DNA of 64,000 nucleotides. Source: Symbiodinium sp. CCMP2592. Taxonomy: Eukaryota; Sar; Dinophyceae; Suessiales; Symbiodiniaceae. Positions 3,969 through 60,070 of the stretch are shown one piece after another. The notes under the pieces were generated by a model. That model was not told the origin of the DNA. It ran no database searches and saw nothing but the letters and a program-made list of their open reading frames with translations. Each line of letters opens with the position of its first letter. Position 1 is the stretch's first letter. A program made the translations under genes and the position numbers. The stretch is from NCBI GenBank assembly GCA_905221615.1, contig CAJNDT010000580.1, positions 443,511 through 507,510 on the forward strand. Direction: 5' to 3'.

Positions 3969-4118
3969 TAGACAGGGCCTTGCACCCCAGATCAGAATGA
4001 GCACCACAGTTGTCAATGCCATACTACCACCACGCTGCTGCTCCTACTCTGCATTGACCTTTAAGCCCTCGAAGCCCCGTATTACGGTACCCACGCCGAA
4101 GCCTTTACAGTAACCCTC

Positions 4119-14257: not shown

Positions 14258-14359
14258 TAGAGTTTCCAAAGATTAGGGATACCTTATTTGGGATCCTTAT
14301 GATAAGGATCCTCCTATTTAGGGTACTATATTAGAGTCCCCTATTTCCGGAAACTCCCA
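14258..14359. mobile_element. Palindromic MITE-like element, family A (copy 4)
   Basis: Left AGAGTTTCCAAAGATTAGGG, right CCCCTATTTCCGGAAACTCCC. The core GGATCCTTATGATAAGGATCC is itself a palindrome. Belongs with the other family A copies. Confidence 0.8.
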
Positions 14360-19514: not shown

Positions 19515-19621
19515 TTTGGGAGTTTCCGAAAATGGGGGACCCTAATATAGTACCCTAAATAGAGAGATCCTATTGTAAGGACCCCAAAATAAGGCACCCC
19601 TAATTTTCGGAAACTCTCATT
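19515..19621. mobile_element. Palindromic MITE-like element, family A (copy 5)
   Basis: TTGGGAGTTTCCGAAAATGG at the left and ATTTTCGGAAACTCTCA at the right. The core CCTAATATAGTACCCTAAAT is in the same orientation as copy 1. Confidence 0.85.
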
Positions 19622-21830
19622 TGAAGTTAGGTCCAGGAGGCCATATGGCGAAGCTCCTGCGTAGCTGTAGAGATCCCCGCTCACATGCACGAGACTGTGC
19701 CACACCTGCTGCTTGTAGGGTCTAGGCTTTGGGGATAGGGGCTTTGCAGCTTTCTCGGATTCAAAGTATAGACCCTCCTTACTAACAGCCCTTAAGTTTG
19801 TGTCTGCTTCGAGGCCTGTTACCAAATCAAGGCTTTTGGCCACTGCGGCAAAATCCTGGATATTGAGATTGCAGAGCTACCCACCGAAATTCCTGAAGTA
19901 TGCCCTGGCTGTCAAAAGATAACCTCGATCATCTTGCTGCTACCGTCCAACTTCCCGGCTTATTTGAAACGACTTTGCCGTGGACACTTAGTCTTGCAGG
20001 GGAGGGGCGGGAGGGGCACCTGCAAACATACACGGAATTCAAGCTCTGACCGAAAGAGTCATTGCAGCATATGACTCATAGGGTTCATATATTCTGGATC
20101 CGAGCGAAAACTGGGTGACAATGACAGGGTTCAGGCTTGCGCTTAGTGGAGAGTTCAGCGTTCGACAGCCGAGGGTTAGAGCTCTGGTGCTTCTTGTTCA
20201 GTGTTTAGGACCAGTGTTGGAGAGTTTAGGGTGTTCAAAAACTCTTCACAGAGGGGCTTGAAGAGTAGACGGGCATATATTGGAGGATATACAACGGGAG
20301 CTTATTGCTGAACCTCGTCATACCTCAACATGACAGACCACTCAAGCAGCAACTCCTTTGCAGGTGCCTTCTGCTGTGGGCCCCCGCCGGTCATACTGCC
20401 AGTGAGATTGACCCAGTCGCCAGTGGAAATTTCATAAGAGTACCTTTGCAGGCATGTTTCGTGTCACCACGAACGAAAGGTTAAGAAGCTCGTGTATGGT
20501 ACCATGATGGCCAGTTGGCCATTCCTTCGGGCTGACAAGTCTTTGGTGGTTGCTGTCCGAAGAAGTTTCTGGCATGGCGGGCACAAGAAGATAACGCGAT
20601 TAGAAGCAGATTGTGCGATGATATGCTATGCTTCTGTAGGTCTAAAGAAATATTACTCCTACATCTATGTTGTGTTTTGAACTTTGGTCTGAGGATTCCA
20701 GTCGGCGTTTTCGCAGGCTCAGGCTTCTTGGGCTGGGCGGTAGGGTGGTAGGGCACTGCCTAGATTGGGGCTTAGGGTCAGGGCTTACGTACGATCCCCC
20801 AGCATGCTAGCGTTCACGCGGGCTTGAGCTCAGTGGCGCACTGTAAGCCCAGAACTATACAATCTAAGATGTCAGCTGCCTGGTGTGAAAGGCTTGCTTG
20901 TAACCTTATGATGACAGCTGCAGTCCAGGCCAGGTTTTGAAGGTAAGCGTGTCAGGCTTTCGACAAATGCAATCTTCTGGCACCGAGATGGGGAAGTGTT
21001 GCCAGAGCTTGCGTGAACTGCATGGTATGCCCAAGCCATCAAGATCAACAGCGTAGTCGTCACGACTTCAACAACCCCGAGACACTGTTAGGTAAAGGAA
21101 AAACAGTTAAATCCTCGAGGCATCTATTCCTAAATCCAACACCCTGATCCCGGAGCCTGAAGCCCTAAATTTACGAAGAGAGCCGAAATGGAGAGAAGGC
21201 ACAGGTCGTGGCTGGCTCCCCAAAGCTGGAGCCCACCGTGGAGATAAATCTTATCCTGCGGGGGCTTAGGATTCAGGGGGAGGGAAATCTTTTTCTGCAG
21301 CGCTTCGGATTTGTGTATGAGGCTGCAGGCTTCTGACTGCGATCGTGGCACTGATGCGATTGTGATGCCGTAATTTCTTGGTGGGCTTGGGTTCTGAACA
21401 CTCATGTCCCTAGACCCAACACTCTGGACCATCTTCGAACAAAGAAGTGAATGGCAGTGAATGGCTTTGCTGTTACTACATAGCACTAGATTTCCTAGCA
21501 GCGTTATTGGCTTCAGTCCGACTTCCCGTGCAACGAGTACTGCCACGACAAAGACGACGACTGCTGCCACTACTGATATGGGCACGACCACAACTGCAAT
21601 GCGGGTTTGAAATTCGGACCACTGCCGAATACCCATGCCTACCATAGCCAAGGGCACCCTGACTCCTTAAACCCTCAAGCCTGATCTCTGAGGCCCGATG
21701 CTCAGACCCTAACCATGCAGCCTACAGCCTCATGATTCCGAATACGACTTGGTCCCCATCTTCGCCGAGTGGCGCTTCCGTCATAAGCCATGCCAGCCCC
21801 TAGCCTGCCGAAGAGGGTAATAATAATATA

Positions 21831-30083: not shown

Positions 30084-30177
30084 GGTGGAAGTACAGGTCT
30101 GAGGATGGTAGGGCATGGTGCTGTCAAGGTTGCTCCTGAGTATTTAGAAGAGGGCCAGGGCTTCAGGAGGGGGGTAT

Positions 30178-30287
30178 GTGGGGGTTTCGGAAAATAGGGG
30201 ACCCTACTACATATAGTACCCTGAATAATAGGATCCATACTATAAGGATCCCAAAGTAAGGTGCCCTAATTTTTGGAACCTCCCATG
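30178..30287. mobile_element. Palindromic MITE-like element, family A (copy 6)
   Basis: GTGGGGGTTTCGGAAAATAG at the left and CCTAATTTTTGGAACCTCCCA at the right. Flanks (GTATG ... TGTTGGTATA) resemble those of copy 1 (GTAATG ... TGTTAGTATA), so the true ends may lie slightly outside the arms given. Confidence 0.85.
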
Positions 30288-30621
30288 TTGGTATAATGCG
30301 AGGGTGTGGCCCGTATACTCACATCGAAGCTCGGGCTTCGCCAAACTTTGGCTAGAATGAAGTAATCAAGCTTCAAAGCATCATGTGTTGTGTGTGTACA
30401 TACATATTGCAAGAGTTCTACACATAAAGGTGTAGAGAGTGCTGTCGGTATACACGGGCTAAAGAAAGAGGAACAGTCAAACAGGCTTAGATGTAAGGCC
30501 CCTGTCTGAACACCTAACCCTACTGCCACCCAAAACCGCAAACCAATCCCAAGCCTGAGCCCTGCACCCCAAGCCCACATCTCAAACCTGGAACCTTGAG
30601 ACGCTCCCGGACCCCTGCTTG

Positions 30622-38651: not shown

Positions 38652-39064
38652 GATGGGGGGGGGGGGGGGTGCTTCTCGTATTGGGTGTGCGTATCTATAT
38701 ATATATATATGTATGTATGTGTAAATATGAACGTAAATGTAAACGTAGATACATATATATATATATATGTGCACATGAATGCTTTTATATGCATATGCAA
38801 ATGTTGTGAATGTAGCTGTGTATGTGTATATATGCATATGTGTAGGTGTAGGTGTATGTATATGCATCTGTGTATACACCTGTGGAAGCATATGTATATG
38901 TATATGTATATGTATGTGTATGCACATAACTATGAACGTATAAGCGGAAGCAGCAAACTAACTACCTACATGAACAAACAAAAAATAAATACACAACAAC
39001 AAAAAGATACCCACAAAAGTCACATGCATATCTACCTACGCAATATGTATGTACGTCTCTATAA

Positions 39065-39106
<42 letters not shown>

Positions 39107-39120
39107 TCACCCCCCCCCCC
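38652..39120. repeat. Microsatellite field: poly-G, (AT)n, TATG/TGTA runs
   Basis: A G15-16 run at about 38,655-38,669, (TA)n at 38,696-38,710, 38,752-38,768 and about 18 units at 39,069-39,104, TATATG runs between, and a C14 run at 39,108-39,121. Translations here are artefacts. Confidence 0.9.
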
Positions 39121-39333
39121 CATGACAGACCATCCCCTTCAAAACATCGCTCCCACCGGCGTGTTCGTGCTTTTTCCGGGGTATCGAGTTTGAGCCCTCC
39201 GAACGTATCCCTGGAACCACCAAAAGACTGAGACCAGAAAGCAGCACGATAAGTCGCGCGGGTGTCCTACCAAGAAAGGAATTACAGAGCACACGTGTAT
39301 GGATGAGGGTTGTGCTGATACACTACATAGTAA

Positions 39334-39685
39334 GCACTACACAGTAATCTTACTTGAGTCATATATAGAGCAGATTCCAGCATTTCCGAAATTTCCAAAA
39401 TTCTCTCCCCTAACTTTCCGGATTTCCAAAATTTCCAAAATTTCCAAAAAGTCCGCCCTTATGTTTTGGAAAAATCCTGTCGACTAGGTCGGTAAATTTT
39501 GGAAATTTTGGAAATTTTGGAAATATTGGAAATTTTTGGAAATTTTGGAAATTTTGGAAATTTTGGAAATTTTAGAAATTTTGGAAATTTTGGAAATCCG
39601 GAAAGTTAGGGGAGAGAATTTTGGAAATCTTGGAAATGCTGGAATCTGCTCTATATATGACTCAAGTAAGATTACTGTGTAGTGC
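39334..39685. repeat. Large foldback with central GGAAATTTT array
   Basis: 39,334-39,447 is the near-perfect inverse of 39,572-39,685; the outermost 15 bases are GCACTACACAGTAAT and ATTACTGTGTAGTGC. The loop and inner arms are a tandem array of the 9-mer GGAAATTTT with occasional variants (39,488-39,595). No coding capacity. It could be a foldback element or hairpin-forming satellite. Confidence 0.85.
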
Positions 39686-41088
39686 TTTTAACACTAACGT
39701 TGACATTTATATTAATGCTTTTATTACGAATATGCACATTACTAATACTATTATTAACATTAATACTTCTACCCCTACCAAGAGTCATATTCATATTGAT
39801 ATTAATGCCAATACTAACAGACACCTGTGTATACTAATGTCCGCAGATATACATACCACTATCTGAAAAGCAAATATATCAATGCATTCGTGTACTAACG
39901 TAGTATAATCGTATTTAATTTGTCATATACCCAGTTTCCAACGTGACAATATACTACTTGTTAACGTCTGATTATACTGTACTGATATGCTAACTTGCTA
40001 AGACACGAATACTGTAATATGCAAGTACACTGACACATGGCAATGATATACTAACATATGGATACACCAAAAAAGTTGGTAGATAATATACGAACATGAT
40101 AAATGAAGTAGCATACCAGGATACTCATACACTAATATGTTAATAATCGAAGATAATAGCACACCAATATACTAATGTACTCATGCACGAACGTGCGCAT
40201 GCATTAATATACTAAGAGCATACAAACATACAGGTATACAAACATATTACTGTTCGAATACATTATAATGTGTTGGTGTACTAAGCTGTTTATATAATCT
40301 ATCAGTATACTAATATATCAAAACTAATTATAGTATTGATACACATACTAGCACGTCCGCGAATATTACACTGATGTTAAATTCATCATTAAGGCTGATT
40401 AAAACTGACATCGACATTGGCACTGGCATTAACACTAGTTATCACTAAATATGCTAGTGTACTAATATACGAATACTGTAAAAGGCAAGTACACTGACAT
40501 GTTCACATGCCATTATGCCAACATATTGATATACCTATAAGCTATTAGGTAAAATACGAATATAGTAAATGTAGTAATAGACCACTATAATAATATACTA
40601 ATATACTACTACGTTAACATACGAAAATCATGATACACCAATATACTAATGTACTCATGCACCAACGTACTAATATACTCGCGCAATCTTCAACTATGCA
40701 AATATACTATTGTTCGAATACATTACTGTATTATATTAAGCTCAAAATAAACGAATCAATCAGTATATTCACATATCAAAACTATTTATAATACTGATAC
40801 TAATACCAACACTTCTGTGAATAATAAACAGATACTAAAACCAGCATTCAGACTGATACTAATACTAACACGAGTACTATTACTTTCATTGACATCGACA
40901 CTGGCACTAACACCAGCACGAACATAATCACGAGTTCATATTTACTTTTATTGATATGTATACTTTTATTCAATACTAATACTAATACTGATGCTAATAC
41001 TAATACTAAATACCAATACCAATACTAGTACTAAAACAATACCCATCCTAATATCAATACTACCACAAAACTATTACTCATATGAACA
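39686..41088. repeat. AT-rich ACTAATA-type repeat field (left of retrotransposon)
   Basis: About 1.4 kb of degenerate TACTAATA / ATACTAAC units, about two-thirds A+T. The same type of sequence resumes at 59,540, so the LTR element sits inside one repeat field. No genes. Confidence 0.85.
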
Positions 41089-41338
41089 TGTGGAGAACGG
41101 AAACCCAAAGGGGCAGCACGCACCCTCGTTTTCCGTCCAAGCAGAATGTCCAACGACCGTGACAGGTCGAACGTCCGCCCAGGACGGGCTGCGCGCAATT
41201 GCGTCGCGGCAACGAGAAGCTACCAACGACACACTGCCGTGCTCACTTGAGCCAAAAATGTTATGAATACGAATTACAGAAGAGCATGCATAAAAGCATA
41301 CAGCACAACAGCCAGCCCGCAGACTATGTACAGTTACA
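41089..41338 (-). repeat. 3' LTR (left copy)
   Basis: 250 bp, beginning TGTGGAGAACGG and ending CAGTTACA on the plus strand. 249 of 250 positions match 59,290-59,539. It includes, on the element's sense strand, TTTTGGCTCAAG (41,257-41,246), a match to the 3' end of the dinoflagellate spliced leader. Confidence 0.97.
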
Positions 41339-41348
41339 TTCGCCCCTC
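41339..41348 (-). other. Candidate polypurine tract
   Basis: On the sense strand GAGGGGCGAA directly precedes the 3' LTR, with one pyrimidine in ten. Its position is right for priming plus-strand DNA synthesis. The tract is short, so support is moderate. Confidence 0.5.
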
Positions 41349-41740
41349 AGCCGAGAGCACGATAGAGCCGTAGGATTCCGCGGGCGGCCGGAGGCCGTAA
41401 AACTGACCTACAGACCCTGCCCTCCTACAAACCCTTCGCACTCAGCACAAGACCTTCGTTTTTCACGGCCTGTGCTGCACGAGGCTCTGGTTTCCTACTG
41501 TACACAGCCTGCGCCGCACTGCGGCCACAGGGCTGGTGAAACGAGCAGCTGAAGCTGCGGCGTTACTCCACGCGCTTCGGGAGCACTACCGTGCCTCCCT
41601 AGCCGCTCCCGTCAAAGACCTGTAGAGCGGATACGCCACCCTGTCGTCTCATCGGAAAGCAGCTAGGTGCTGCGACCAAAACTGAAGTTGCCACAGGTGG
41701 CTAGAAGGGCGGAGCGCAGTCCGCGACTTCTAGTCCACGG
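41349..41740 (-). other. 3' untranslated region of the retrotransposon
   Basis: About 390 bp between the stop codon and the polypurine tract, GC-rich, without a conserved frame. Contains the stop-proximal hairpin at 41,701-41,733. Confidence 0.6.
41701..41733 (-). other. Hairpin just after the polyprotein stop codon
   Basis: CTAGAAG (41,701-41,707) and CTTCTAG (41,727-41,733) are perfect inverse arms. They enclose GGCGGA...TCCGCG, giving a stem of about 12 pairs with few mismatches and a loop of about six bases. On the sense strand it starts seven bases after the TGA. Possible roles are RNA stability, packaging or readthrough; none is shown. Confidence 0.65.
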
Positions 41741-44700
41741 TCACTGCGGCTCCACGTTGGGTTGCGCGGCGGGCTGCTGGACATTTGAGGGTTTTGCCCG
41801 CCCGCGGTGGTTCCGCTGAGGTGCTTCGAACTCCTCGAGCTTCAGCGCCTTGGACCACTCGGTGCCAAACGAATCTAGCCACTTTTGGCTAAATTCAGAG
41901 GTCAGCACACTGGCGACCGCGATGCCGACCTCCGCGTTGGCCCGTGAACTAGCACTAAAGTTTAGGCTTCCTATCACGGCGCTAACTGTGGAGTCCGGCC
42001 TCGTCACGAGCACCGTCTTGGCGTGGTGGATGCCCGCGAGGCCTGCGCCGATGCTCACGTCCGTGCGGTTCTCGGCGGCGTAAGCCGCCTTGACCGAGGT
42101 GCCCTTGCCGACACGGACCTGGACGCCAGCCGCCCCTAGCTCCTTGAGGGACTGCAGCTGGAGCTTGGTCCGGCTCGTCTGCGAGTTGTCGGCAAGCACG
42201 TGGGCTCGGGCGCCTCGCTCCAGCGAGGACACGAGGGCTCCAACCAAAGGCTTGCTATCGAAGCTGTAGGCTCGCACGTAAACGTGGTCCCCATGCCCAG
42301 CGTCCGATAGCATCATTTGTACCACAGCGTGATACTCCGGAAGGGTCAGAAACTTGACCCCGGCTCGCTCGAAGCCGTCAGGGATCGGGAAGTCTCTGAC
42401 ACGGCGTGCCTGGCTCGACATGGGAGCTGCCAGGGCCGGAGACGCTGCAGAGGTACTTTGGCGGGGAGCCTCTGCTGCAGGCGTCTTCGGGACAGTCTCT
42501 GTCGGAGGCGCCGACACTGTGGCCACCTCCTGGCGGCCTCTGAGCCTGGTAATGCCGTCAAGGCAGCCCTCAGACGGGTTGCCGACATTCCGGGCTCTTT
42601 CCGAGAGCGACCTCGCCTTCGACACCATGCCGGAAAGGCACCCCTGTTCCAGGGCCGGCGGGCCGAGGATTGCACGGGCCCGTCTAGTCGCGGCCGGGGC
42701 AACGGACAGCGTTGGGGCAGCGCTCGCGCCTGTCACGGCCACGAGTTGCCCCGCAGCTTCAACAGCGCGTTCTATGTGACCGCAACGTCCCTCGTTGAGG
42801 AATGCCTTGCAGTCGCAGCCTGCGCCATCCGCGCCCGACCCGATCTTCACCAGGACTCTGTGTGCGCCGGCCTTAGTCTTCGAGGCTACCTCAAAGACGG
42901 CCTCCCGGCCTTCGAGCGACACCAGAACAGCATTCCCAAAGGGGTTACCGTTCATGGCGTGCATTAGCCGGTTAGTGGCGACACGTCCGGCCCACCACAG
43001 CACTACGGCCGCGAACGTCCACAGTAGGACGACGGCCGTCAAGCCAACCACGCGGACACCCCGAACGAGGATACCAGAGGATTCCTCGATGAGGTCCTCC
43101 GCCGCAGTGGCAACTGCAGTGAGGCTCACGTGTGCCACCTCTCTGGCACCGCGCTCAACAGTGAAGAGGGTAGGCGCCAGCGCAGCGGCCACCAAACCCA
43201 TCTTCCATCCAATGTTGCCCGTTGTGGCGTGGGCTGCGCGATTGCGCGCTCTCCTGGAGAGAGCCCAGCTGGAGACCGCAGCGCCTATCGAGCGCACGGC
43301 CCCAAGGAACCCACCACGGTTCGAGGGCCCGGAAGAGACAGCGGGGCGAGAAGAAACGGCAGGGGCCTCGGGCGCCACTCTGTGGCCACCCGGGCCACGC
43401 AGTGGGAGCGTGAGGGCGGGCTGCCCAGCACGCTCGCCGAGTCGGGAGGAGTATGCCAGTCCGGCAGCACCTCCGGCCCACCATCCTCGGTTGCCGTAGC
43501 GGTTCGAGCTTCCCCTTCCACCACCTTTGCCACCACCCTTGCTGCCAGAGCTGCGGCCCCCACTGGGTGCACCGCGCCCGGAGGAAGGTTGGCTCCACCA
43601 GGCTCGGGCAGAGTCTTGAGAGAGCTCTGCCTGCCTGCGCTTTTCAGCGCGGAGCCTCTTCCGTCCGGAGCGGAGGAATTTCCTCGCATGCTCCGCAAGG
43701 GGATCGGCGTTGATGGAACGCTCGATCCGTTCCATCTTCGTGCCCTCGCTCTCTTCCGACGAAGAAGCAGCTTCATCGTCGCCTTCCTGGGGCGGCATGC
43801 CGTGGGTTATGAACGACGCGCCCGACTTAGGGCCACTGCACTTAAAGCACAGTTTGCGCCATAACATGTTCCTCTCTTGGCATGTGTCCCGCCCACAGGT
43901 CCAGTAGGCGTTGGACATTGCGGCGGCGATCGCGTCCGAACGCTTCGCATAAAGGTACTCCTTTATGCGTTCCTTATGTTCATCGAGCCAGACCTCGATG
44001 AACCACGCCGGCGCCGTTCGCAGGTCCACCGGCGTGCTCCAGTACAGGCTGTCCTCGAAGATCCCCACACAGGGGGCACCTCCGAGCTCCTCGGAATCAT
44101 GGTGCCGGCAGGTATTGCGTTCTGGTGGGTTCGCACGCCCACAAGTAAAGCAATCCCACCAGCCCCAAGGCCAGACCTTGCCTGTGAGGAGCGGAACGCG
44201 CTCGGGTGTCGGTCCAAGCTCGTTTTCATCGTAATCGGGCCAGATTTCAAACACTGGCCTGTTCGACAAAATCGCAGCCTGGTAGACGAACGCGCGCCTC
44301 CGGCGCCGCGCCAACGCGAGGAGCTGCTCAAGCGTGTAATCACCCTCGCCACGAAAGAAGGCCTTGATCATTTCGTCATGTTGAAGATCAAGGGGGACCG
44401 TAAGTCTGGGATCCACATCGCGTGCGCCGGGCCTTCCAGGCCCCGGCGGTGGAGTCGCTTCCCAGTCCACGTCGCGCCAATCGGCCCCGGGAACCTCGTT
44501 CGAGAGTCCGTAAACTCCCGAAACTCGGTGTTGGGGAGCCGGCGACTCCATGGTATCCTGCCATGTTGTGAATCGCTTCTTGGGCGGCGGCGGTCCCTCC
44601 GGCTCCGCGGGTCGCCGCTTGTCTGTGCTCGACGAAGCAGCGGCCCCGCTGGCACCTTCTTCGGCACCTGCCTCGCCACTAGACGAGGGAGCCGCGCCTG

Positions 44701-47700
44701 TCCCGGCCGCGGCCCCCGCAGGGGCGGACGGAGCCGGGCGCGACTCTTCCTTCTTCGTGGTGGCCCGCTTGGCCGCGGGGCCTTGACGCTCAGAGCCGCT
44801 CTCCTCAACGGCGCGCTTGAGGGAGGAGAGGGACTTAGCCTCTGCTGTCTCCTTTTCCTCCTTGGTCACTGCAGGAAGGCGGGTGTCGCGCCGTGCCTCA
44901 GGAGCCGCAGCCGCGGCCTCCTGGGCCGAAGCAGCAAGCTCCTCCTTGGCGCGTGCCGCCGCTCTTTCCCGTGCCAAGCCTGCCTTCATAGACTCCGCGA
45001 GGCTAGGGATCCGGACCTCCGGACTCCCTGCCTCAGCTGGGGGAGTCACGTTGGCCGCAGGCGCTGCAGAGGAGGAAGACGCCTCCTGAGAGGCATCCGG
45101 AGGAGCAGGAGCCATCTCCTGATCCTCGGAATGCGTCGCCGAAGATGGCGGAGCTTTCTTCTTAGGGCTGGAAGCCTGAGGCTCCGCACCCCATCGTGGA
45201 TCAGGCGGGGTTCCAGTCCTCTGGACACCCCCCTTCTCTCGAGGGAGCAGATCCGTTTCCAGCATAGGGGGATCTATCTCCAGTTGGGTGTCAGTCTGCT
45301 TTGCGATAGGGTTCAAGACACCCGCGGCGAGCTTTTCTTCTCTGAGCCCATCGTGGGCGTTCCAGATAAGGTCTGAAAAGGTTTCCCTCATCGCTTGGAC
45401 GTGCTCCCTCGGGGTATCTTCCCGGGGAGCGTCCACGTCCGGATCTTGGGGCTCCAAAAGCTCGTCGGGGAACGCCGGAGGAGGCGGTTCAACATCTTCG
45501 GGAACCTCTCCGGATCTCCCCTGCTCTTCGCGAATCGCCTCCAACGCTTCGCCCAGCGGGGTCTCGTCCCTAAACAAGTGACGGTAGGGACTCGGAGCTG
45601 CGGCGTTGGGCATCATGAAGTCCGTCTCCTCGTACGCTGGCCCGAGAATGGTACTCGGGTAGCGCACGGGAGGCTTCGCCCGCTGCACCGGCCTCCGGTC
45701 AAGGCGATACGTGCGCCAGAGACCATCGGAAGTGACACAAGGCGCCCCATCCGGGAGCCGCCTGAAATCACGCAGCTCCGCCCCGATGCGATCACAGAAG
45801 CGGTCCGGGTTGGAGATATGCGTAAACCGGCCCAGGTCAGCCTCAAAGACCCAGACACGGTCTCTGTGGTCTCTGCGAGCTTCTCCGTGGCGGAAGCGTC
45901 TCAGAGCCACAGCGGCTTCTCCAAAGAACGCATCGTCGCACGGGGCCGGCACCATGTTCGCCGGAAGGCCCCTTCCGTGGACCGCCGCTCGGTGGTACGC
46001 GGCTTCGTACTCGTGCTCGAATTCGGCACGGCACCCGCGGATACCACACTTGTGGCCGGACCCACGGGAAGGAACCCTTCTAGGGTCTCCGTTCCCAATC
46101 TCCTCGGGTGTAGGGCAACCAGCCACGCCCCCGCCATGGATCGCACTCCGGTCGGGGGTGTCCCCGAGATCGACGAATTCCCCAGGCACTGCAGCCTCCT
46201 CGGGAATCGGATCCACACTGAAAGGCACAAAGGTGTGCCGCGCAGGAGACTTCGGAGCGGGCCGTTCTTGGCTTGCCGACCGACGCTCCACGGATGCCAT
46301 GAAATCGTCGATCCCGCGGAGGATGGCCTCAGTCTTGGCCCGTTCCTCCTCGGTCTCCTCTGGGACGGCCGTACCTCCTTCTCGGGAGCCCTCTGGGCCT
46401 CCCGTGGAGGCCGAGCTCGCAGAAGGGGCTTCAGCACTAGGAACGGCCCCCTTCGGAGCGGCCTTGAGCGGAGGCCCACCAAGCTTAGGCCGGATAGGGC
46501 CTTGGTAAGGCCCGGGCCCCAGCCCTCCATGAGGCAAGGGCCTTTCCGACCGGTTCCTCGCAGCAGGTGGCGGAGGAGGAGATCGCGCGATGGGCGGCTC
46601 AGCCGGCCCACCCAGCAACCATCCAGGCCTGGTGCTCAAGAACTCCTCGGCCCTCTCGGTTTCCATGATCAGGAACGGCGGTGGAGGCCTGACCCCTTTC
46701 GGCGTCGGGCCAGGCTTCACCGTGACCATTCCTTCCGGAACGGCTGGCCTCTTCGGCGGCGGCTTCGGGTTCGCCTTCTTGCTGAAGTTCTTCGGGTGGA
46801 ACAAATCCGCTGGAGTAAGCGTACGGTCCGCCTCCATCGGCTGATCCCCAGGCGCTGCACCGGCACCCTCAGGGTCACCGGGCGCGGCCTGAGGATCCTC
46901 AGGCAGCTCATCCCGGGCCCTGGGCGGCGTCTTGTAGCGGATCGTGTCCGCAGGCGGTGCTTCGGGAGGCACCTTTTGAGGGGGGCGGTGTGATCTTCCC
47001 CGCTCCTGTTCCCCTGCCGAAGGCGCTCCCTCTGGGGCCACCTTGGGGGTAGGCTTTAGTTTGCCTTCCCGCCCTGGCGGCGGCCTATCATCGACCGTCC
47101 TGGACCGATGCAGCGCAGAGGGCATCCCACGGGGACCACCCTCCTTAGGTGGTCCAGGCGGGGGTCCCGCCGGCATTGCCGAGCTCTTGGCCCGCACCTC
47201 AACTTCCAGCTCGGAAGACGAGTCCTCGTCCCCGATATAGTAGTTGACCGGGCCGGCTCCGCCAGGCGGCGCCGACTGCTCTCTGCGGACTCCGCTCCCG
47301 GGCTCCGCATCATCGACCCACCGCAGGGTGTTACCCTGACGCTCTGCAAGCGAGAGGTCGAAGACTTCACAGCCGGGTTGCACCGTGAGGATTCGGAGGA
47401 TGCATTCTGGAGGGACACGCCCTGTCAGAACACATCCGTCTGTCCCTCTCCAGACGGGCACCCCGGAAGCCCTTAGGAGCTCGAGGTTCGAGACCACAAG
47501 ACAGGTCGAGTTCTTTCTAAAGCCCGACGTACTGTCCCGCTGTCTTGGGTACCCGGGCCCGATCACCCAATGGACAGTCAGGCGCGGGCCGTTTCCGCCT
47601 CCCGGGAGGAGGCCGTCGCGGCCGATCCGCCGCGCATGAAACACCTCTGTGCCATGACAGAGGGTGGAGCCTCCGTACTCTACCGAGAGCTCCCTCATGC

Positions 47701-50700
47701 CGGCCTCATCGAGGCCGTCTCCATACACGGTGCCCGCGGTCAATCCTGACCCACGGCCGTGTCCCTGGAGAGCCCGGATCCGGCCATCGACCAGCTCCAG
47801 CCGCTGCTTCTCCCGACCGCCAGCCGCGTTTTCCAGATCACTCGCCGCACCTGCCTCGATCGCGGACGAAGTGATCTGGAGCTTCTCGGCTAAGGCGGAT
47901 ACGCTAATCCAGCCCCCTTCGCCGAGATGGCCCTGCAGGCCGAATTTGCCGTGGCGGAGGGCTTGCGTAAGCGCCCTCTGGCAAACCGCGGGGTTCTCTA
48001 GCCACACCCACGGCTGCCATCGTGAGTTGCTATCACGACCGCCTTTCCCTTCGTTCCCGCGTCTGCGGCCACCTCCCATGGCGCCCCTCGCGGCTCCCTG
48101 GCCCACGAGGGGCCCGGCACACGGAGGAAAAAGTGGGAGTGGCTCCGCGACCAGCCGGTCCACGGAGGACCCACCGGCAGCGAAGGAAAGAGGGGTACAC
48201 GCGACCTCCCGGCCCACGTGTGCCAAAGCACACCGCGAGGCGCAAGAAGCCGATGGCAAGGGCCCGCGCGGCCCGTCGCAAGCTACTGGGCTACTCGTCT
48301 TGAGCCCACGCTGCGCGGCCATGTCCTGAAAGGCAGGGGGTTCAAGGGGGCTGCACAGAGAGAGGGGGTAGGGCTCACACTCAGCACGACCTACACCCTG
48401 GACTACCTCACTACACCCTTGCTGCAGCACGCACGCAACGAGTAGTAGCATAGAAAGGAGGTAGCGACCCACGGGCGTAAAGGCCTGCGTCCGAGCTGCC
48501 CCCCACGTTCCCCCCCGAACCCCCCCGACGCGGCACACTAAGGCCCCGAACCCTAACCTAGACCCCGCGGTCAAGACACAAGCGGTCAAGACGAACACAA
48601 GCGAGTTAGGGTATAGGGCTCTTGTGGGGTGGTTAGTGTCCGTTAGGGATTCATCGTGTTTTGCTTTTGCTTTAGGCGCGACCTTCCGGTCCGCGTCAGG
48701 CGGACTGGAGCTCGAGCCGTCGCGGCCTCGAGCGCCTAAGGCTTCAAGGGCGGAAGCGGCGGTCTGAGGCGCGGAGCGGCTGCCCTTCCGGCACGCCGTC
48801 CTTATCTCCTCCTCTGCCTCCGCATCCGTGAGGAAACGGCCGTCAACGACCCTACCTGTACGAACCGTCAGGTCGTCGACATAGGCCACCCATTCCTTAG
48901 TGAACCTAAGCCTTCGATTGCGACCCGGCGCATACGCGCGGTCCACGACGTAGTTAAAATCGTCGGGACCATTGACAGGCCCGAAGGTAAGCCCAATAGG
49001 GAGGTACTTACCGCTACGCGCAACAATGGCAAGAACCTCCCTGGCACGCTTCGTGTTGCGGATCTGATTGAACCCGGAAACCGCATCAACGAAGCTATAC
49101 CAGACTGATCCTACCGCTGCAGCGAGCACATCCGTGCTCCGCCGGCAGTAGTAAGTGGATCTCTTCACCCTGGCGTTTACCCTGCGGTAATCTACCACCA
49201 AGCGGCGTTTCCTCGCCCGCTTGTGGGAAGGCATCTCCTTCGTAGGGAAAGGGGCCGAACCCCAGGCCGAAGGGCCTCGCACAAGCTGCCCTCTCTGGAC
49301 CTCCTCCTCAAGCCGGTCATCAACCCACTGCGCCGCTTCCCCGCGGAGCGCATGGGGCTGAGAGCTGACCGGAGGCCCCGTAGGGACGCAGTCGTGCGCA
49401 AACTTCCGGACCGTGGTACGCGCCGTACCTTCGACCCAGAATGCAGCGGCCTTCCGGCCCACCGTCTCCTTAATGGCTGCGAGATCAGCCTCGGTGAGCC
49501 CCGGACGGTTCTCCGTAGGGCCCAACCTGAGGCCTTCAATGACCTGCGCCTTATACTCTGGCGTACGGCGGGGATCGGCAGCCACAGCCTGGCCTGCCAA
49601 CGCATAGACCTCCAGGTCCGCGAAGACACCATCCCAATCCTTGGCGTCTGCCTTCGACCGCCAGTGAGCATCCATCTTCCTGGAGAACTCCAGAACTTCA
49701 GCCTCCATCTTCGCTCTCTCTTGAGGGGAGAGGTCCTCGCCAGACTTAACGTCCGGCAACGGTACCTCCGGAGCGGAAGGCTTCGCAGGCTCAGCCGGCG
49801 GCTGGCCGCTCACTGAGCAAATGCTGTCGTAGCAAGGGGGCTGGTCGCCCCTCAGACCAGCATCCGCCAGGCAACGGCACAAGGCCGGAGCGAGCACCCT
49901 CGAAGAGGTCCGGGCCTTCGCGTGCTGATGGGCTACCCTGCCCAAAGCGTCAGGCTTTGCACAGCGAACGCAAACCGAATCCATCTTGAAGTTGGAAAGA
50001 CAGATCAGCGCTCCTTCCGAATGCTTAGAACCCCTAGGAACTGATCCCAAGAGCTGACATCGATCAGCTCGGCCGAAAGCCCAAGGGAACTTCGGTTCCG
50101 AAAGCGTCCCAAACACGGGAGCCCACCCCTGGGCCTCCCAAGGCTCCCAAAGTCCTTCCTGATCTGAGATAGTAACAAGCATCTGGCGCCCCTTCTCGGC
50201 CACCATTGCTCCCCACCTACTGACCAGGGAGAGGAACTCCTTGGGGATACCCTTACCGGATAGGCCCACAACGAGGCACTTGGGGTCGAGCGTATCGACC
50301 AGAAGGCTCAGGGCTTGCCGGTCCTCCTCTGAGGAGAAGTCCCAGCGGATCCCGTAGGAGCTGGCTCCTTGAACCGCAGCAGGAGGGCTACGCAGGCCTC
50401 CTGCCTTACTGACCTGAGTAAGCGAGTGCTCCGACACCGCTACTTCGACAAGGTCCACGTCCATACCCTCTAGGTGATCTCTGATCCACCCCTGGACCGC
50501 GGCACAGGAGCTACCTCTACCGACGATCAAGGAGGGCGCGGGAGCCTCAGCAAGGAGCTCCTTCAACGCAGCAGGGACGTCAATCGGGGAAGCTGCCACA
50601 CCCACTCGGTCCGGCACGGACTCTTGCAAGGAGTAACCGGCCTTATCGAGCTTCCGGGCAGAAGACGCAGCGAGAACCCCATCCCTACTAAGATCCACCT

Positions 50701-53700
50701 TGGAGATAATCTCCTTCACGGTGATGGACTCTATGGCCTGTCTCGTCCCTTCGCGGGTCAGAGAACCGCCTTCGTCCAAAAACGCAAGGTGCCACCGGAC
50801 TCTGAGTCCTGAGGCGTCGGGGATGTACCGGTGGACGCCCACCTGTGCCCTGGCTTCGTCCACTTGCGTGACCTTGCCTAGGCGACAGGTTTTAGGGCCC
50901 ACTCGGGCGCCATGGTACGCAACATGGTCACCAATACGCAACACGAAGTTGCGGCCCCGGCGCTTGACAGTAAACTCGACCTGCTTAGCTTCACCGGCCG
51001 CTTGCTGACCCAATGAAGGCGGCTGATGCTCTGGCTCGTCGAAAAACTCTATGGGGTCCCTCTTCTCGGGCACCTCCGCATCTTCCGGCACGAGCACTAC
51101 ATCCTCCGCGTGGGCTTCACATTGCCGGCCTGGCGCCTCACCAGGGCCACCAGGAACAAGTTCGAGTTGCAGCCTATGGCCTTTAACCGCCACTATCCTC
51201 CAAGGGCCGGTCAGACCAGGCTTCCAAGGGACACGCCCCGCCCCCTCTGGCCGGGGCTTGGGGGAATTCCAGACAACTCTGTCCCCCACGCGGAGCTCAA
51301 CTGTGCGACGCGACCGATTAGCAAGTCGGGCACGCGCCTCACTGCTCGCGTCCCAATGGCGCCGCACAGCGGCCGCCAAGTCGGAAAACTGCTTGAACTG
51401 GGAACGGGCCCAGTCCGTGATGGGCTCGAATTGGAGGGCCTCGCGGAGAACGTCCTTCTCCAACGGCAAGGCGAGGCTCCAGGACCGTTCCAGGTCCCTG
51501 GGGGTGTACCCATGCGCCCCCGGGGTATTATCCAACACATACTCGGCGACCATGAGCCATTCGCTCCAGTTCTCCATGGAGCCGCCGATATGCCGGATGA
51601 GGTTACCCAGAACCTTCTGGACCTCTTGGTGGACCCTCTCGTTGGACCCCATCTCACAAGGCCTGAGAGCCATACTGAACTGCTGAGTTGTCCCAAGCAT
51701 GGAGCACAACTCCAGCATCATGGCATTCTTGAACTCAGTGCCTCGATCAGATCGGATGAGGCGGGGCAGGGTGCGTGATCTCAGCACGCACCGCAGAAAT
51801 GCCCTACGCACATCCGTATGCGTAAGTGTCTTCATGGGTTCCAGAAGCACTGCGTGGCTAAGGCAATCAAAGTACGTAATACTGTATCGGAAGCCATCGC
51901 GGTCCTCCCGATTAGGACCCTCGCAGTCGACGGAAACTTCCTGCCAACACGCTTCCGCGAGACATTTGACAGGTTTCGCTTCGACCTTCGTGGCTCGGGC
52001 CCTGCCCTTAACACACGCCAGGCATTTGGACACCCACAACTTAACGTCTGGTTCCATTCCTGGCCACCAGACGGCCCTTTCAAGGAGACGGAACGTGACC
52101 TCCGCCGAACGGTGCGCCCCCAGGAGGCCACAATGCACAGTCATGTAGCATGACTTCCGCCACGTGACGCCATTGGGCCCGGCGATACCGTTCGGGACGA
52201 CCGGGACGACCACCGTCTGGCCAGTCTTGATGGTCACTTCCCTCTCCAAGACTCCGTCCGAGCCAAGCTTGAAAGGGGCTTCCGGCTTCTTGACCGAAGC
52301 CGTAAGGGACGGATCTCTCCGTTGAGCCTCGTGCCAAGCCGTGCGAAGAGCTGGCGTGACGCCGAACTCGCAGAGCCCGGCGCCATCCCTGGCCGCCAAG
52401 GCCAGCTTTTCTCTCTGACTCTCCGGGCTGTCCTTGTCCGACAGCACAGGGAAAGAACCGAGGCTGAGGGGACCAGAACCCCCGGACGCGGACACCTTAA
52501 CCCGGCAAGTCCGCACGGAATGTGACTTGACACAAAAGGGCCGGTGGGAGGAGTACAACTCCACAACCACCCGTGGGGCCTTGGTAGCGGACCCCACAAA
52601 AGCCAGGGTCCTGCTAAGCTCTCCTTCCTTGACCTCGATCTTCTTCGAGAGCTGGACGGCCATCCAATGGCCTTCCTCTCCTGAACACTGGAAGGCGGCG
52701 ATGACAGGCGAAGCCCTGAGCGACTTCCGATGCCCAAGGGACTGGATGCCGTCCCCATCATTCCAACCTTCCACGCGGTCCACCTCTCCCTTGAGACCAA
52801 GGAGACACGCAAAGGATTCCCGGAGGCGAACTTCGCCCTCCTGGAGATTCCATATGCGTTCGCACTCAGAATTAACCACATGCCTGTGGCTGTGCCAGTT
52901 GGGCTCGACAGCCCAGTTGAGCGAGCTCGGCCCGCTCAGGCAGGACGGGAAGGCCTGGTGCCCTTGCAGGACTTCACCAGAGGCGTTCACGACCCAGGAA
53001 CTCCACAAAGAAGGGCCGTCCTTCTCGCACCCCTCGACTGGAAGCTCCAGGTCGCCCCCAGTCCAGACCCTCGCCTTAATCCTGCCGTACACCGTGGGCA
53101 GGAGCCCTTCCACGGGCTTTTGGAGGAAACCTTTGGCCCATGCTCGGATGAGGTCCGTATCAATGTCCACCGAACCATCAGCAAGGCTGGCGGACAAGAG
53201 GGCGTTCACCTCGAGTGACACGCTCGGGTCGGCAGACTCCGGGCCCTCAGCGGCCTCCTTTTCGGCTTGGGCCTCAGCAACCTCCAGAGCTGTTTCCTCC
53301 GCCTCCTGCCGGATGCACGAAGGACACCTTGAAAATAGGTATGTCCTCTTTCCGCAGGCGCAGACTCCTTCGTGATCCCAAAGCTCCCGAGAGGGCGCGT
53401 CAACGAGACCACGCAAGGAAACATCCGCGACTTTGGAGATCCCTTCTAGCTTCAGGGACGAAAGGACCTCAGCGGAAGCGGCAATCTTGCCCACTATCCC
53501 ATATCCTGGTATAGGGGGCTCGGGAAACTCACGCCCCATCTCTGGGCACGCCTCAGCCACCTCAGCATGAGTAGAGTGCGCCTTCCAGACCTTAGGCTTA
53601 AGGCTCCAGATACCCTTGATCCCTGCCCAAGCGAGGCCCGCGACGCGGGCTTCCTTGCGCTGCAGGTTGCGAGCCTGGAGGGTGACTTCAACCACCAGCG

Positions 53701-56700
53701 GCCACCGCAAGGCAGCGGTGACAACTCCTCCTTGGCCAAGTCCTACCAGAAAGGTAGGGGAAAACGCAGCGGCTTCCCGAAGTACCTTCGCACAGGACGT
53801 AAGCAGGTCGACGCGGAGCTTCTTGACCTTCTTGGGCCCGGTAAGCTTACCGGTCATACCGTCGAAGTGGGACGCCACTCCGTCATCGTCCTCAAAAGGG
53901 CCCCAGCAGCCTCTCACCGCAATGGAGTGCCCCGGGATTCCCGAGACGAAGACTTCACGGATCTCCGTGAGCGCCCTTTCCTGCTCCGTCCAAGGGGCAT
54001 AATCGAAAACAATCATAACGCGGACAGGGGGACCGCCCGCGACCCCGACCGGCACCGCAGCCGCGGTCGCCGGGGCAACCTGCGTCGCGTGATCGGGAAC
54101 CGCGTCTTCCCCTACTGCCCAGGGAACAGGACCGTCACCTTCGGTCCCTTCTCCAAGGTACTGGTCCAGGTCGAACCCCTTCAGCTGGCCAGTCATCCCG
54201 ACCAAGTCCTTGGTCCGGGCGGCCAAGAGCTCGTCCCGACCCTTCGGGTTCCTGGAAAAGGAGTCCCCCAGCGTCGCACTGCGACCACTGAGACTCCTGA
54301 TCTCAGACCCATCCATCAAGATCTCCGCAACCCATCGAACCAGTTTCTGGTCGGAGCCGATATCAGAGGACTGCGCTCTCGTAAGATTGGCATGGTCCGT
54401 CCAACACAGGGTTCGGATAGTTCCGAAGACCTTTCGGGTTGCTCGCTTGACTTCGAGCTGTGCGAAGGCTTCTTGAATCAGCGGGGGCCAATTTTGCTGC
54501 GCAGGGGTCAGACTCTTGGAGTGAGTCATAAGAACCTTAATCCTTGAGAGGTCCCTGCTCATTTGCACCACCGAGCCCCCTACCGCAATCCCGCTGGCGT
54601 CCGCTATCTGCTCAAGCGGGCAAGAGCCATCAGCAGCCGACGCCTCATCGAAGGCCGCCAGGCTGATATGGTGGCTCATCATCTTCTTGATGGCCTTGAA
54701 AGCCTTGCAGCCGGCAGTGGTGCCTGTCCCCAGGCCACCTTCCGGAAACTCCGCTCCCGGTTTCTGCCATTGGCCCAAAACCTTAGCAGCATGGCCATAT
54801 TCCGCTGGCAGATAGCCCCGAAGCCAGTTCGCACACCCAAGGAATTGCTGGATGTGGAGCTTTTCCTTAAGCGGCGGGAAATCCACGACCGCTTGGCATC
54901 GCTCCTCGTCGGGCGCACTCCCGTGCCGCCCGATCCGGTGCCCGAGGAGCTTACCCTCTGACACACAGATCTCAGCCTTGGCGACACCAAAGGAGAACCC
55001 AAAGAGGATGCTCTTGTCGAGGAAAGCTTCCAAAGAGACCAGGTGATCGAGAAGGTGCGGGCAAGCACCCTTGTGCCTCGCACCCATATCCTCCCGCAGC
55101 TTGTCGTAGTAGTAGTCGGAGGGAGGTTCCTCGATCATCTTCTCAATGTCGGCCGATTCCACTATGTGGTACACCGGCTCGTTCCTAGTGTCCACTCTGG
55201 AACCACTAGTGACGTCTCGGCCGTGGCTTCCTCCAAGCCCCCTCGTAGCGGAACCCGCATCCCATCCTGCCCAACGCGGCCCCGTCTTCGTCCTGAAGAC
55301 CGCGAGATCGGACGTGACGGGCACGGTCGACCAGTCGACAGACTCGGGCCAAAGCCTGAGGTCCCTAGTCTGCCACAACCGCCACGGGCCGCCAGAAGAC
55401 TTCAAGAGGCAAGTCTCGTACGGAAGCCTTTCGACATCCGGCCGATTCTCCGGGTCACCTTCCTGGGGCCTGCCGCTCCAAAGGCCAGCCATTCCTCCCT
55501 TCGTCTGCCACCACTGGCCCTCAGTGGGGATGGAGGAGAGGAAGGACACGGCATCCGGATCCGTAACCACGGACTCCGTGGCCCAAGGCCCTCCTAGGAC
55601 CGTGCTTACGGCGGCAAGGGCGAAAACCGCCCCAACCCTCAGGCCCTTACGCCAACCCCTGCTGTGCGAGCATGCGCCGCAGCCTTGCAGGCCACAGACG
55701 GCGGTCCTCTCGGTGGACCCGCACGCAAAGCATCCAGGGAAGGTCGAGTCTTCGGCAGTGCCTAATCCGCAGTTCCCACACGGGTCACCACTCGCGTCCG
55801 TAAAGAGGGTCTCAACCCCTCCGCATTCACACGCGGTGGTCTGCGCGAGCCCGGTCCGGACCTCGCCGACGACGGCACCCGGAGAGACAGTCGTGTCCTC
55901 TTCGGCTACCAGCAAGATCGAACCTTCCTCGGCTCCTGTGGGCCACAGCCCAGGCACTGCTTCGCAGTTGGCGGACTCTACCGGGAGGACAGCCTCCGTA
56001 AGGGAGCCATCCTGGCCTCCACTGCCTTCCCTCTTCACAGGTGCGATGACCCCATCTCCGGCCAAGAGCTCCAGCGGGTTCTCCCCGCTGTACCGGAGCA
56101 GGTCCCTGCCTCCGGTACCCGGCTCAAAGCACAGAGCACCGTCGAGACTAGAAAGCCTGGACTCGAAGGCGTAGGCGCGGTCCTTCCGCGACCTACTGTA
56201 GTCTTCGCACCTGGGGATCTTAATCCCAAGGGTTTCCAGGGAGTGGCAGTCAGGAAGGGGCTTGAAGCCCAAGCCCTGCCGTCCCGAGCAATCCAAGGCG
56301 CGGCCGCCAAGGATGAGCCCATGCCAATCCGAGGTTCCTTTCGCGGCTATTTTACAGCGCACGAATATCTCTGGACCCTCGCTGCAGTTGTCGGGGGAGA
56401 GCCCCTCCAGAAAGCGGACTCTCAGCACGACGGCCCCCTTCAGGGGCACCGGCTTCCCTGCAGCGATCCCATGGACGAACTCCGGATGCACCCAGCGTTC
56501 GAACTTCACGACAGGAAACCTCCGGTCCTCCGTGCCGATCCCCAAGGCAGCAGCCCGGTTGAGGATCCCACAGAGGAGTTCCTCCGTGATGTGGTTCGAG
56601 CCTGCACACCCGTCCAGCATGCATTCCACCATGCCGTCGATGACCTGCACGACTGTTCTGTACTGGTACCCCCCGACCTCGTTCTCGCAGAGGTGCCACC

Positions 56701-59149: not shown

Positions 59150-59269
59150 GGTCGCCTAGCGAAGGAGAGAGCCCCGTGCCACACAGGACCACGGCCTCAA
59201 GGCGCACGACAAGCGCGCCTTCGAGGCCACGTTAAAAGATTGCGGCGCAGCAGCCGCCTGGGTGGCCGT

Positions 59270-59287
59270 TTCCCAGAACAGCCCCCA
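59270..59287 (-). other. Candidate primer-binding site
   Basis: Two bases after the 5' LTR the sense strand reads TGGGGGCTGTTCTGGGA. The initial TGG would pair with a tRNA 3' CCA. The matching tRNA cannot be named from sequence alone. Confidence 0.5.
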
Positions 59288-59289
59288 AT

Positions 59290-59539
59290 TGTGGAGAACG
59301 GAAACCCAAAGGGGCAGCACGCACCCTCGTTTTCCGTCCAAGCAGAAAGTCCAACGACCGTGACAGGTCGAACGTCCGCCCAGGACGGGCTGCGCGCAAT
59401 TGCGTCGCGGCAACGAGAAGCTACCAACGACACACTGCCGTGCTCACTTGAGCCAAAAATGTTATGAATACGAATTACAGAAGAGCATGCATAAAAGCAT
59501 ACAGCACAACAGCCAGCCCGCAGACTATGTACAGTTACA
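59290..59539 (-). repeat. 5' LTR (right copy)
   Basis: 250 bp, same ends as the left LTR, one mismatch. It should carry promoter and transcript start. The sense strand includes ATGCTTTTATGCATGC (AT-rich, near 59,490) and TTTTGGCTCAAG at 59,458-59,447. The sequence between the LTR and the start codon (59,150-59,289) is a 140-bp leader. Confidence 0.97.
59447..59466 (-). promoter_or_regulatory. Spliced-leader-like sequence in the LTR
   Basis: The sense strand has 12 bases identical to the 3' end of the dinoflagellate spliced leader (TTTTGGCTCAAG). Extending upstream without gaps gives about 16 of 20 matches. A copy is in the other LTR at 41,246-41,265. Relict leaders arise when trans-spliced mRNA is copied back into the genome. 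Confidence 0.6.
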
Positions 59540-59724
59540 AACACTGATATCAGGATTAGGACTACTACGAACAATGACAGCAGTACTAAGAATAGAACCA
59601 AGAACAATACATATTAATCCTAACACTAATACTAGTACTAATACTAGCTACTAATTCTAATACTCATACTCATACCAATACTAATGTCACCACTACTGCT
59701 GCTACTACTACTGCTACTACTACG

Positions 59725-59755
<31 letters not shown>

Positions 59756-60070
59756 GTACACATACTTAATACTAAAACTAATACTGATACTCATACTAGT
59801 CACTAATACTAATACTAATACTCATACTAATACTAATACCAATACAAATGCTACCACTACTACTACTGTGCGACAACGATTGCTAGTACGACGACTACTA
59901 CTATTAACATCAATATACATACTTAATGCTAATACTAAGAGTAATACTAATTCGAATACTATTACTAATACTAAACATCCTAATATCAATACTACCACAA
60001 AACTTACCTTTTCGGTTTACTGTGGGAAAAAAGCTGAAACTTTTTTATGTGTTTTGGTATAATATATATG
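59540..60070. repeat. AT-rich ACTAAT/ACTACT repeat field (right of retrotransposon)
   Basis: ACTACTACTACTACT and ACTAATACTAATACT units, continuous in kind with 39,686-41,088. A 29-bp stretch at 59,976-60,004 (CATCCTAATATCAATACTAC...) also occurs at 41,044-41,072. Confidence 0.85.

What the first reader, a model, noticed from the sequence alone, without database searches (positions are those of the whole stretch)
47375..48007. Tpt1/KptA RNA 2'-phosphotransferase domain inside a retrotransposon polyprotein
All family blocks and the R-H-R-R catalytic set (R3732, H3733, R3792, R3856) are present. Tpt1 enzymes remove a splice-junction 2'-phosphate using NAD+, or ADP-ribosylate nucleic-acid ends. 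Carriage by an LTR element would suggest a role in primer tRNA repair, protection of RNA/DNA ends, or countering a host RNA ligase pathway. I know of no reported retrotransposon with this domain.
Basis: partly seen in the sequence, partly recalled or inferred. Interest (0 to 1): 0.9.

Follow-up and report, generated by a model that had tools for sequence, protein, structure and literature searches.

The report
Dinoflagellate retrotransposon with RNA-repair enzyme
A recently inserted retrotransposon, probably from a coral-symbiont type of alga, carries an intact-looking enzyme of the Tpt1 (RNA 2'-phosphate removing, ADP-ribose adding) family, and its relatives have kept the enzyme's active site, so it is probably part of how these elements live rather than a chance passenger.

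Summary
Observation confirmed. Residues 3709-3944 of a 5802-residue minus-strand ORF match Pfam PTS_2-RNA (43.6 bits, cut-off 26) and model as a Tpt1/KptA fold (pLDDT 91.5; 22 of 22 PDB matches at E<=0.001 are Tpt1/KptA). The ORF lies in an 18.45-kb LTR element with 250-bp LTRs (one mismatch), a 4-bp TSD and a dinoflagellate spliced-leader relic. It is not a one-off: 18 of 34 relatives match PTS_2-RNA by Pfam; of 22 reaching 350 residues past the RT YxDD motif, 21 show the domain, five partly. Six of seven functional residues are invariant in 11 non-redundant copies. Two corrections: the domain follows pol behind an unalignable spacer and usually its own Met, so it probably heads a second protein; and pol is permuted, RT thumb/RNase H before integrase, palm after. 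Substrate unknown: I favour NAD+-dependent RNA 2'-phosphate removal, with 5'-end ADP-ribosylation close behind. No report of such an element turned up in the library searched.

The parts
41085..59543 (-). whole LTR retrotransposon with its 4-bp target-site duplication (TGTT at 59540-59543 and 41085-41088)
59290..59539 (-). 5' LTR, 250 bp, TGT...ACA, 249 of 250 identical to the 3' LTR
41089..41338 (-). 3' LTR, 250 bp
59447..59462 (-). spliced-leader (DinoSL) relic ACATTTTTGGCTCAAG in the 5' LTR; second copy at 41246-41261 in the 3' LTR
   Evidence: DinoSL sequence from passages of PMC6050394 and PMC12014239
59271..59287 (-). primer-binding-site-like sequence TGGGGGCTGTTCTGGGA, 2 nt after the 5' LTR; fits the 3' end of a tRNA with C73, such as eukaryotic tRNA-Pro (recalled, no call)
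   Evidence: inference
41741..59149 (-). single ORF, 5802 aa (P0001)
56885..57214 (-). two CCCH zinc fingers, Gag-like region (the name Gag is inferred; no gag profile matched)
   Evidence: zf-CCCH, Torus
56570..56638 (-). possible retropepsin motif (LDGCAGSN); no profile match
   Evidence: sequence; inference
54251..54979 (-). RT thumb/connection and RNase H; matches Ty3 RT (4ol8) residues 249-475
52004..52156 (-). integrase zinc-binding domain (H2C2)
51662..51901 (-). integrase core (rve, 32.4 bits, just under the 32.6 cut-off)
48863..49222 (-). RT fingers/palm with YVDD; overlaps the match to Ty3 RT (4ol8) residues 108-210; lies after integrase
48620..48634 (-). conserved NHPTR at the apparent end of pol
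48080..48619 (-). spacer not alignable with that of most relatives, with splice-acceptor-like CCCTCTCTCTGTGCAG at 48351-48366
   Evidence: inference
48077..48079 (-). Met codon 3691 (MGGG...), likely start of the second protein
   Evidence: inference
47318..48025 (-). Tpt1/KptA domain, residues 3709-3944; R3732 H3733 R3783 H3832-G-T R3856 R3878
43823..43906 (-). RanBP-type zinc ribbon (19.3 bits, under the 27-bit cut-off; 2 stretches)
42776..42817 (-). SWIM-like motif CxC...CxH
   Evidence: by eye
41855..42289 (-). PLD-like phosphodiesterase/nuclease domain at the C-terminus
   Evidence: PLDc_2, 37 bits, cut-off 27

Best explanation
A young, structurally intact dinoflagellate LTR retrotransposon belongs to a lineage that captured a Tpt1/KptA gene and has kept it as a working enzyme. 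Shown by computation: the domain's identity and predicted fold, a complete tetrad, its place between LTRs after pol, and conservation of the active site across diverged relatives. Inferred: the enzyme heads a second protein (Tpt1, low-complexity region, zinc fingers, SWIM-like motif, PLD phosphodiesterase), made from its own Met or by proteolysis. Inferred and most likely in my view: it uses NAD+ to remove 2'-phosphates from RNA, so that RNAs broken by metal-independent RNases and resealed, or left with 2'-phosphate ends (the element's own genome or host tRNAs), become usable again for translation or reverse transcription.
For: Profile match above cut-off. Confident model, with 22 of 22 significant PDB matches in the family. 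Tetrad, HGT and R3878 aligned to the CthTpt1 residues. In an alignment of 19 sequences (the window, 14 relatives, 4 KptAs from bacterial genomes) positions 3732, 3733, 3781, 3783, 3832, 3856 and 3878 are invariant. 15 of 236 columns are invariant in 11 non-redundant copies, and 6 of 7 functional residues are among them (p 1.5e-7). 18 of 34 relatives match by Pfam, 23 of 34 by my own HMM (10 of those were its seeds). Across 45 pairs of 10 diverged copies, the Tpt1 domain aligns far above shuffled sequence in 45 of 45 (z 12.5 or more, median 19), the spacer before it in 3 of 45 at z 5 (median 1.2). RT and Tpt1 distances correlate (Mantel rho 0.77, p 1e-4, 11 copies), as expected if the domain is inherited with the element. 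17 of 21 copies have a Met-Gly/Ser start 24-41 residues before RHG. 2'-phosphotransferase activity is said to be conserved across the diverse homologues (PMC6582358 discussion passage).
Against: No activity, transcript or protein data, and no DNA of relatives, so no dN/dS. Identity contrasts between spacer and Tpt1 are mixed: of 36 pairs tested, 9 have Tpt1 better kept at p<0.05 (best P0006/P0011: RT 97%, spacer 62%, Tpt1 92%, p 7e-10), 26 show no contrast (P0004/P0005: 67% and 67%), and 1 goes the other way (P0003/P0007: spacer 98%, Tpt1 82%, p 5e-7; P0007's domain is cut short and runs into other sequence). The domain evolves much faster than RT (33-40% against 66-77% identity from the window copy), so a changed substrate is possible. 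The window copy departs near the active site: QGHG for QGHS, and C3906 where relatives have the V of NGV; H3860 is Y in P0005 and P0009. P0021 runs from RT to PLD without Tpt1. No dinoflagellate source of 2'-phosphates is shown. The same active site also does 5'-end ADP-ribosylation (PMC6582358).
Confidence: 0.5

Rival explanations
1. End capping: the domain puts ADP-ribose on 5'-phosphorylated ends of the element's cDNA or RNA, shielding them from exonucleases, sensors or end joining until integrase acts.
For: Human TRPT1 and S. coelicolor KptA ADP-ribosylate 5'-phosphorylated RNA, TRPT1 also ssDNA, and the TRPT1 tetrad mutants lose this activity (PMC6582358 passages); TkoKptA has been solved with DNA and 5'-p-ADPR-DNA (titles). 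The tetrad is intact. Zinc-finger and PLD domains downstream point to nucleic acids.
Against: Pfam found no ADP-ribose hydrolase (macrodomain or ARH) in the ORF to reverse the cap; integrase needs free 3' ends only (established knowledge), so the benefit is conjectural.
Confidence: 0.27
2. Counter-defence: the domain repairs host tRNAs or element RNA cut by a host anticodon nuclease or other RNase induced against mobile elements.
For: Repair of RNA after host RNase attack is the role proposed for KptA in phages and in RNA-virus polyproteins (PMC9503650 passages). Fast evolution with a fixed active site fits a conflict gene.
Against: Pfam found no RNA ligase, 2H phosphoesterase or polynucleotide kinase domain in the ORF, so the rest of the pathway would have to come from the host; no such defence is known to me in dinoflagellates (not searched).
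Confidence: 0.12
3. The domain has drifted to a protein or small-molecule ADP-ribosyltransferase and no longer acts on RNA.
For: Low identity to cellular enzymes (21-29% to four KptAs of bacterial genomes); C at the NGV position and G for S in QGHS in this copy.
Against: R3732, H3733 and R3783, whose CthTpt1 counterparts contact the RNA phosphates, are invariant in 11 of 11 non-redundant copies.
Confidence: 0.07
4. Artefact or passenger: a host Tpt1 gene caught by one insertion or by misassembly.
For: Only one copy is in the window; the window's own genome could not be searched.
Against: The domain lies in the same ORF between 99.6% identical LTRs with a TSD; the same RT-then-Tpt1 order occurs in 21 of 22 relatives that reach that far. 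Three of the 34 relatives bear a name, all Durusdinium trenchii.
Confidence: 0.03

Closest known systems
Tpt1/KptA/TRPT1 RNA 2'-phosphotransferase family (Pfam PF01885)
   Same: Two-lobe fold, R-H-R-R tetrad, HGT motif, NAD-lobe Arg
   Different: Carried by a retrotransposon; 21-29% identity to four KptAs of bacterial genomes; basic stretch before the domain; NGV position is DGC in this copy; activity untested
KptA domains in RNA-virus polyproteins (Beihai picorna-like virus, Botrylloides leachii nidovirus, dicistro-like viruses EPlV2/PVLADV1)
   Same: A Tpt1/KptA domain joined to an RNA-replicating element's polyprotein (PMC9503650, PMC11316551 passages; structural match to the nidovirus)
   Different: Those are RNA viruses; this is an integrating LTR element, and the domain follows pol (in EPlV2 it lies between VPgs)
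SymbioLINE-Dnmt and SymbioDIRS-Dnmt3 retrotransposons
   Same: Dinoflagellate retrotransposons that captured a nucleic-acid-modifying enzyme and keep it under constraint (PMC5890265, sections 6 and 11 read)
   Different: DNA cytosine methyltransferase, in LINE and DIRS elements; here an NAD+-using enzyme in an LTR element with a DDE-type integrase
Ty3/Gypsy LTR retrotransposons
   Same: LTRs, TSD, RNase H, H2C2/rve integrase, RT pieces that match Ty3 RT
   Different: RT is split and permuted (thumb-RNase H before integrase, palm after it); extra Tpt1, zinc-finger and PLD module; 5802-aa single ORF; spliced-leader relic in the LTR

Membership tests
Tpt1/KptA family | Profile match above the curated cut-off | tested here: met
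   PF01885 43.6 bits, cut-off 26
Tpt1/KptA family, cellular KptA equivalog (NCBIfam PRK00819) | Score above the equivalog cut-off | tested here: not met
   29.7 against 231 and 19.8 against 239: a family member, not a cellular KptA ortholog by this rule
Tpt1/KptA family | Essential R-H-R-R tetrad | tested here: met
   R3732, H3733, R3783, R3856 aligned to CthTpt1 R18, H19, R68, R121; invariant in 19 of 19 aligned sequences
Tpt1/KptA family | HGT motif of the NAD lobe | tested here: met
   H3832-G-T3834
Tpt1/KptA family | H-H-V triad with HLA and NGV motifs as tabled for TRPT1 (PMC7955679 passage) | tested here: not met
   Here H3832, H3860 (in VHW) and C3906 (DGC): the V is lost in this copy, kept in aligned relatives as DGV, EGV or ENV. 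A secondary set, beside the essential tetrad
Tpt1/KptA family | Winged-helix RNA lobe plus ART-type NAD lobe | tested here: met
   Model pLDDT 91.5; Foldseek and VIA-align matches over both lobes
Tpt1/KptA family | NAD+-dependent removal of RNA 2'-phosphate | not testable with these tools
   Needs biochemistry or yeast complementation
LTR retrotransposon | Two near-identical LTRs in direct orientation with TSD | tested here: met
   249 of 250 bp, TGT...ACA, TSD TGTT
LTR retrotransposon | RT, RNase H and DDE-type integrase between the LTRs | tested here: met
   RVT_1, RT_RNaseH, Integrase_H2C2 above cut-off; rve 0.2 bits under it
LTR retrotransposon | Primer-binding site next to the 5' LTR | tested here: inconclusive
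   tRNA-like 17-mer 2 nt inside; host tRNAs not available, none in the window
Ty3/Gypsy | Domain order PR-RT-RNase H-IN with one contiguous RT (order recalled) | tested here: not met
   Ty3 RT 249-475 aligns to residues 1391-1633 and 108-210 to 3310-3417, with integrase between; same order in P0023 and P0025

The most novel reading that the evidence does not exclude
A whole lineage of dinoflagellate LTR retrotransposons replicates with an NAD+-dependent nucleic-acid end-processing enzyme of its own and with a reverse transcriptase that is encoded in two permuted pieces on either side of integrase and reassembled after processing, the Tpt1-PLD protein being expressed separately from a trans-spliced RNA.
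Probability: 0.35. Interest if true: 0.92.

Novelty: new variant of a known kind. Interest (0 to 1): 0.74.

Why it matters
Why most organisms without a 2'-phosphate-making pathway keep Tpt1 is an open question (stated in a PMC6582358 passage). A mobile element that keeps its own copy gives a setting in which the enzyme's benefit can be measured. It adds an NAD+-using enzyme to the cellular enzymes captured by retrotransposons and parallels captures by RNA viruses, which suggests a shared need of elements that replicate through RNA. The permuted RT found beside it would challenge the view that the order of parts within RT is fixed.

Tried and rejected

Papers: PMC5890265 outline, sections 6 and 11; passages only of PMC9503650, PMC6333775, PMC6582358, PMC6050394, PMC12014239, PMC7955679, PMC11316551, PMC11453091; others as search listings. 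PMC5776459 not held.
Full report
What is there. On the minus strand a single ORF of 5802 codons runs from 59149 to 41741. It has no internal stop, while the other five frames of that stretch have 51 to 218 each. G+C in 2-kb windows is 39-55% in windows outside the ORF and 60-66% between 42001 and 58000. The ORF is flanked by two 250-bp direct repeats, 59290-59539 and 41089-41338, identical at 249 of 250 bases, with TGT...ACA ends and a 4-bp target duplication TGTT. Two bases inside the 5' LTR a 17-mer reads like the complement of a tRNA 3' end with C73 (the likeness to eukaryotic tRNA-Pro is recalled and not tested). This is a recently inserted LTR retrotransposon.

The host. Both LTRs hold ACATTTTTGGCTCAAG, two edits from the 15-nt relic form of the dinoflagellate spliced leader (leader from PMC6050394 and PMC12014239 passages). 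1 of 2000 dinucleotide shuffles of the LTR does as well (7 of 2000 for the 21-nt leader), and no other site in the window lies within two edits. Over the whole window the test is weaker: the 12-mer core occurs twice, and 12 of 100 shuffles reach two matches at up to one mismatch. Three of 34 protein relatives bear names, all Durusdinium trenchii. The host is therefore a dinoflagellate, probably of the Symbiodiniaceae (inference).

Is it kept by the element family? A query running from RT to Tpt1 found 34 relatives at E<=0.01 (the 7988 candidates sharing most words were scored). Pfam PTS_2-RNA matches 18 of 34 and PLDc_2 8 of 34. My own HMM, seeded with the window copy and 10 of these relatives, matches 23 of 34. 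Of the 22 relatives that extend at least 350 residues past the YxDD motif, 21 have a Tpt1 match, five of them over part of the domain only (P0007, P0008, P0019, P0024, P0031); P0021 goes on to the PLD domain without one. The other ten without a match stop within about 310 residues of YxDD or lack that motif. Seventeen complete domains reduce to 11 at 85% identity, 21-53% identical to one another. In these, 15 of 236 columns are invariant, and they include 6 of 7 functional residues (hypergeometric p 1.5e-7); the seventh, the T of HGT, is S in P0012. Distances in RT and Tpt1 correlate (Mantel rho 0.77, p 1e-4, 11 copies), as expected if the domain travels with the element.

Constraint against the neighbouring spacer. 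Raw identity contrasts were mixed: of 36 pairs, 9 have Tpt1 better kept than the spacer at p<0.05 (best P0006/P0011, 92% against 62%, RT 97%), 26 show nothing (P0004/P0005, 67% and 67%; several pairs almost identical), and one goes the other way (P0003/P0007, where P0007's domain is cut short). Many spacer identities lie near 30% and may be no more than forced alignment gives, so I added a shuffle control: over 45 pairs of 10 diverged copies the Tpt1 domain scores z 12.5 or more in 45 of 45 (median 19), the spacer z 5 or more in 3 of 45 (median 1.2). The spacer is thus turned over freely while the domain is held. The domain still changes much faster than RT (33-40% against 66-77% identity from the window copy); what is held tightest is the active site.

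Where it sits. Pol ends at a conserved 'KHD..SD.NHPTR' (residue 3510 here). The spacer follows (180 residues here). Then a Met-Gly/Ser start precedes RHG of the Tpt1 domain by 24-41 residues in 17 of 21 copies; it is missing in P0004, P0005, P0019 and P0027 by the pattern used. In 12 of 20 relatives the spacer holds PQPF, PLPF or PQLF, which could be the translation of a pyrimidine-CAG-CC splice acceptor. The window spacer has CCCTCTCTCTGTGCAG|CC in another reading frame (48351-48366). I infer that the Tpt1-zinc finger-PLD part is a second protein in the env position, perhaps made from a trans-spliced RNA, and that the 5802-codon ORF joins both parts. Without relatives' DNA this stays an inference.

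A second oddity. Ty3 RT (4ol8) residues 249-475 (thumb, connection, RNase H) match residues 1391-1633 (E 2.4e-7), and residues 108-210 of the same chain match residues 3310-3417 (E 4.1e-5). Integrase lies between them. P0023 and P0025 have the same order in single proteins, and P0023 is collinear with residues 1399-3516. The RT is thus split and permuted in a conserved way. A structure of the first piece failed (pLDDT 35.5), so nothing is shown on how the two pieces would meet.

How it may work. The tetrad supports two chemistries by one active site: removal of RNA 2'-phosphate, and ADP-ribosylation of 5'-phosphorylated RNA or DNA ends (PMC6582358 passages). I put RNA 2'-phosphate removal first because that paper calls it conserved across diverse homologues and because the residues that meet the RNA phosphates are invariant here. 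End capping of cDNA is the close rival. Counter-defence is favoured by the parallel with phages and RNA viruses (PMC9503650; PMC11316551) but Pfam shows no partner enzymes in the ORF. None of this has been tested.

Novelty. Searches for retrotransposon or retroelement with Tpt1, KptA with transposon, dinoflagellate with phosphotransferase and retrotransposon, KptA/Tpt1 with domain architectures, and PTS_2-RNA list no paper on a retrotransposon with this domain, as far as titles, abstract starts and the passages read can tell; most subscription papers and all preprints lie outside that library. Public databases already carry the Pfam label on such proteins, so the fact is visible though I found it undescribed. 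Nearest in kind are DNMT-carrying Symbiodinium retrotransposons (PMC5890265) and KptA-carrying RNA viruses.

Noticed in passing
54251-54979 and 48863-49222 (minus strand); P0023, P0025: Split, permuted Ty3-like reverse transcriptase: thumb/connection-RNase H before integrase, fingers/palm after it, conserved in two relatives that span both parts.
   Followed up: partly
59447-59462 and 41246-41261 (minus strand): Relic of the dinoflagellate spliced leader inside both LTRs, suggesting that the element's RNA is trans-spliced and that the leader became part of the LTR.
   Followed up: partly
48080-48619 (minus strand): Spacer between pol and Tpt1 that is open but hardly alignable among relatives, with a splice-acceptor-like site; relatives often show PQPF there.
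   Followed up: partly
P0021: A relative that passes from RT to the PLD domain without Tpt1: a loss, a deletion or a gene-model effect.
   Followed up: no
5759-7064: Tandem array of 123-bp units, 10.7 copies, open on both strands; the minus-strand reading (by eye) looks like RCC1-type repeats, while the Pfam matches there have no stretch passing on its own and look like chance.
   Followed up: no
38695-41050 and 59580-60000: TA-rich TACTAATAC-type repeats on both sides of the element, its apparent insertion site.
   Followed up: no
3715-3830, 4114-4225, 10206-10319, 14259-14361, 19514-19623, 30176-30295: A dispersed repeat of about 105 bp, at least six copies in both orientations.
   Followed up: no
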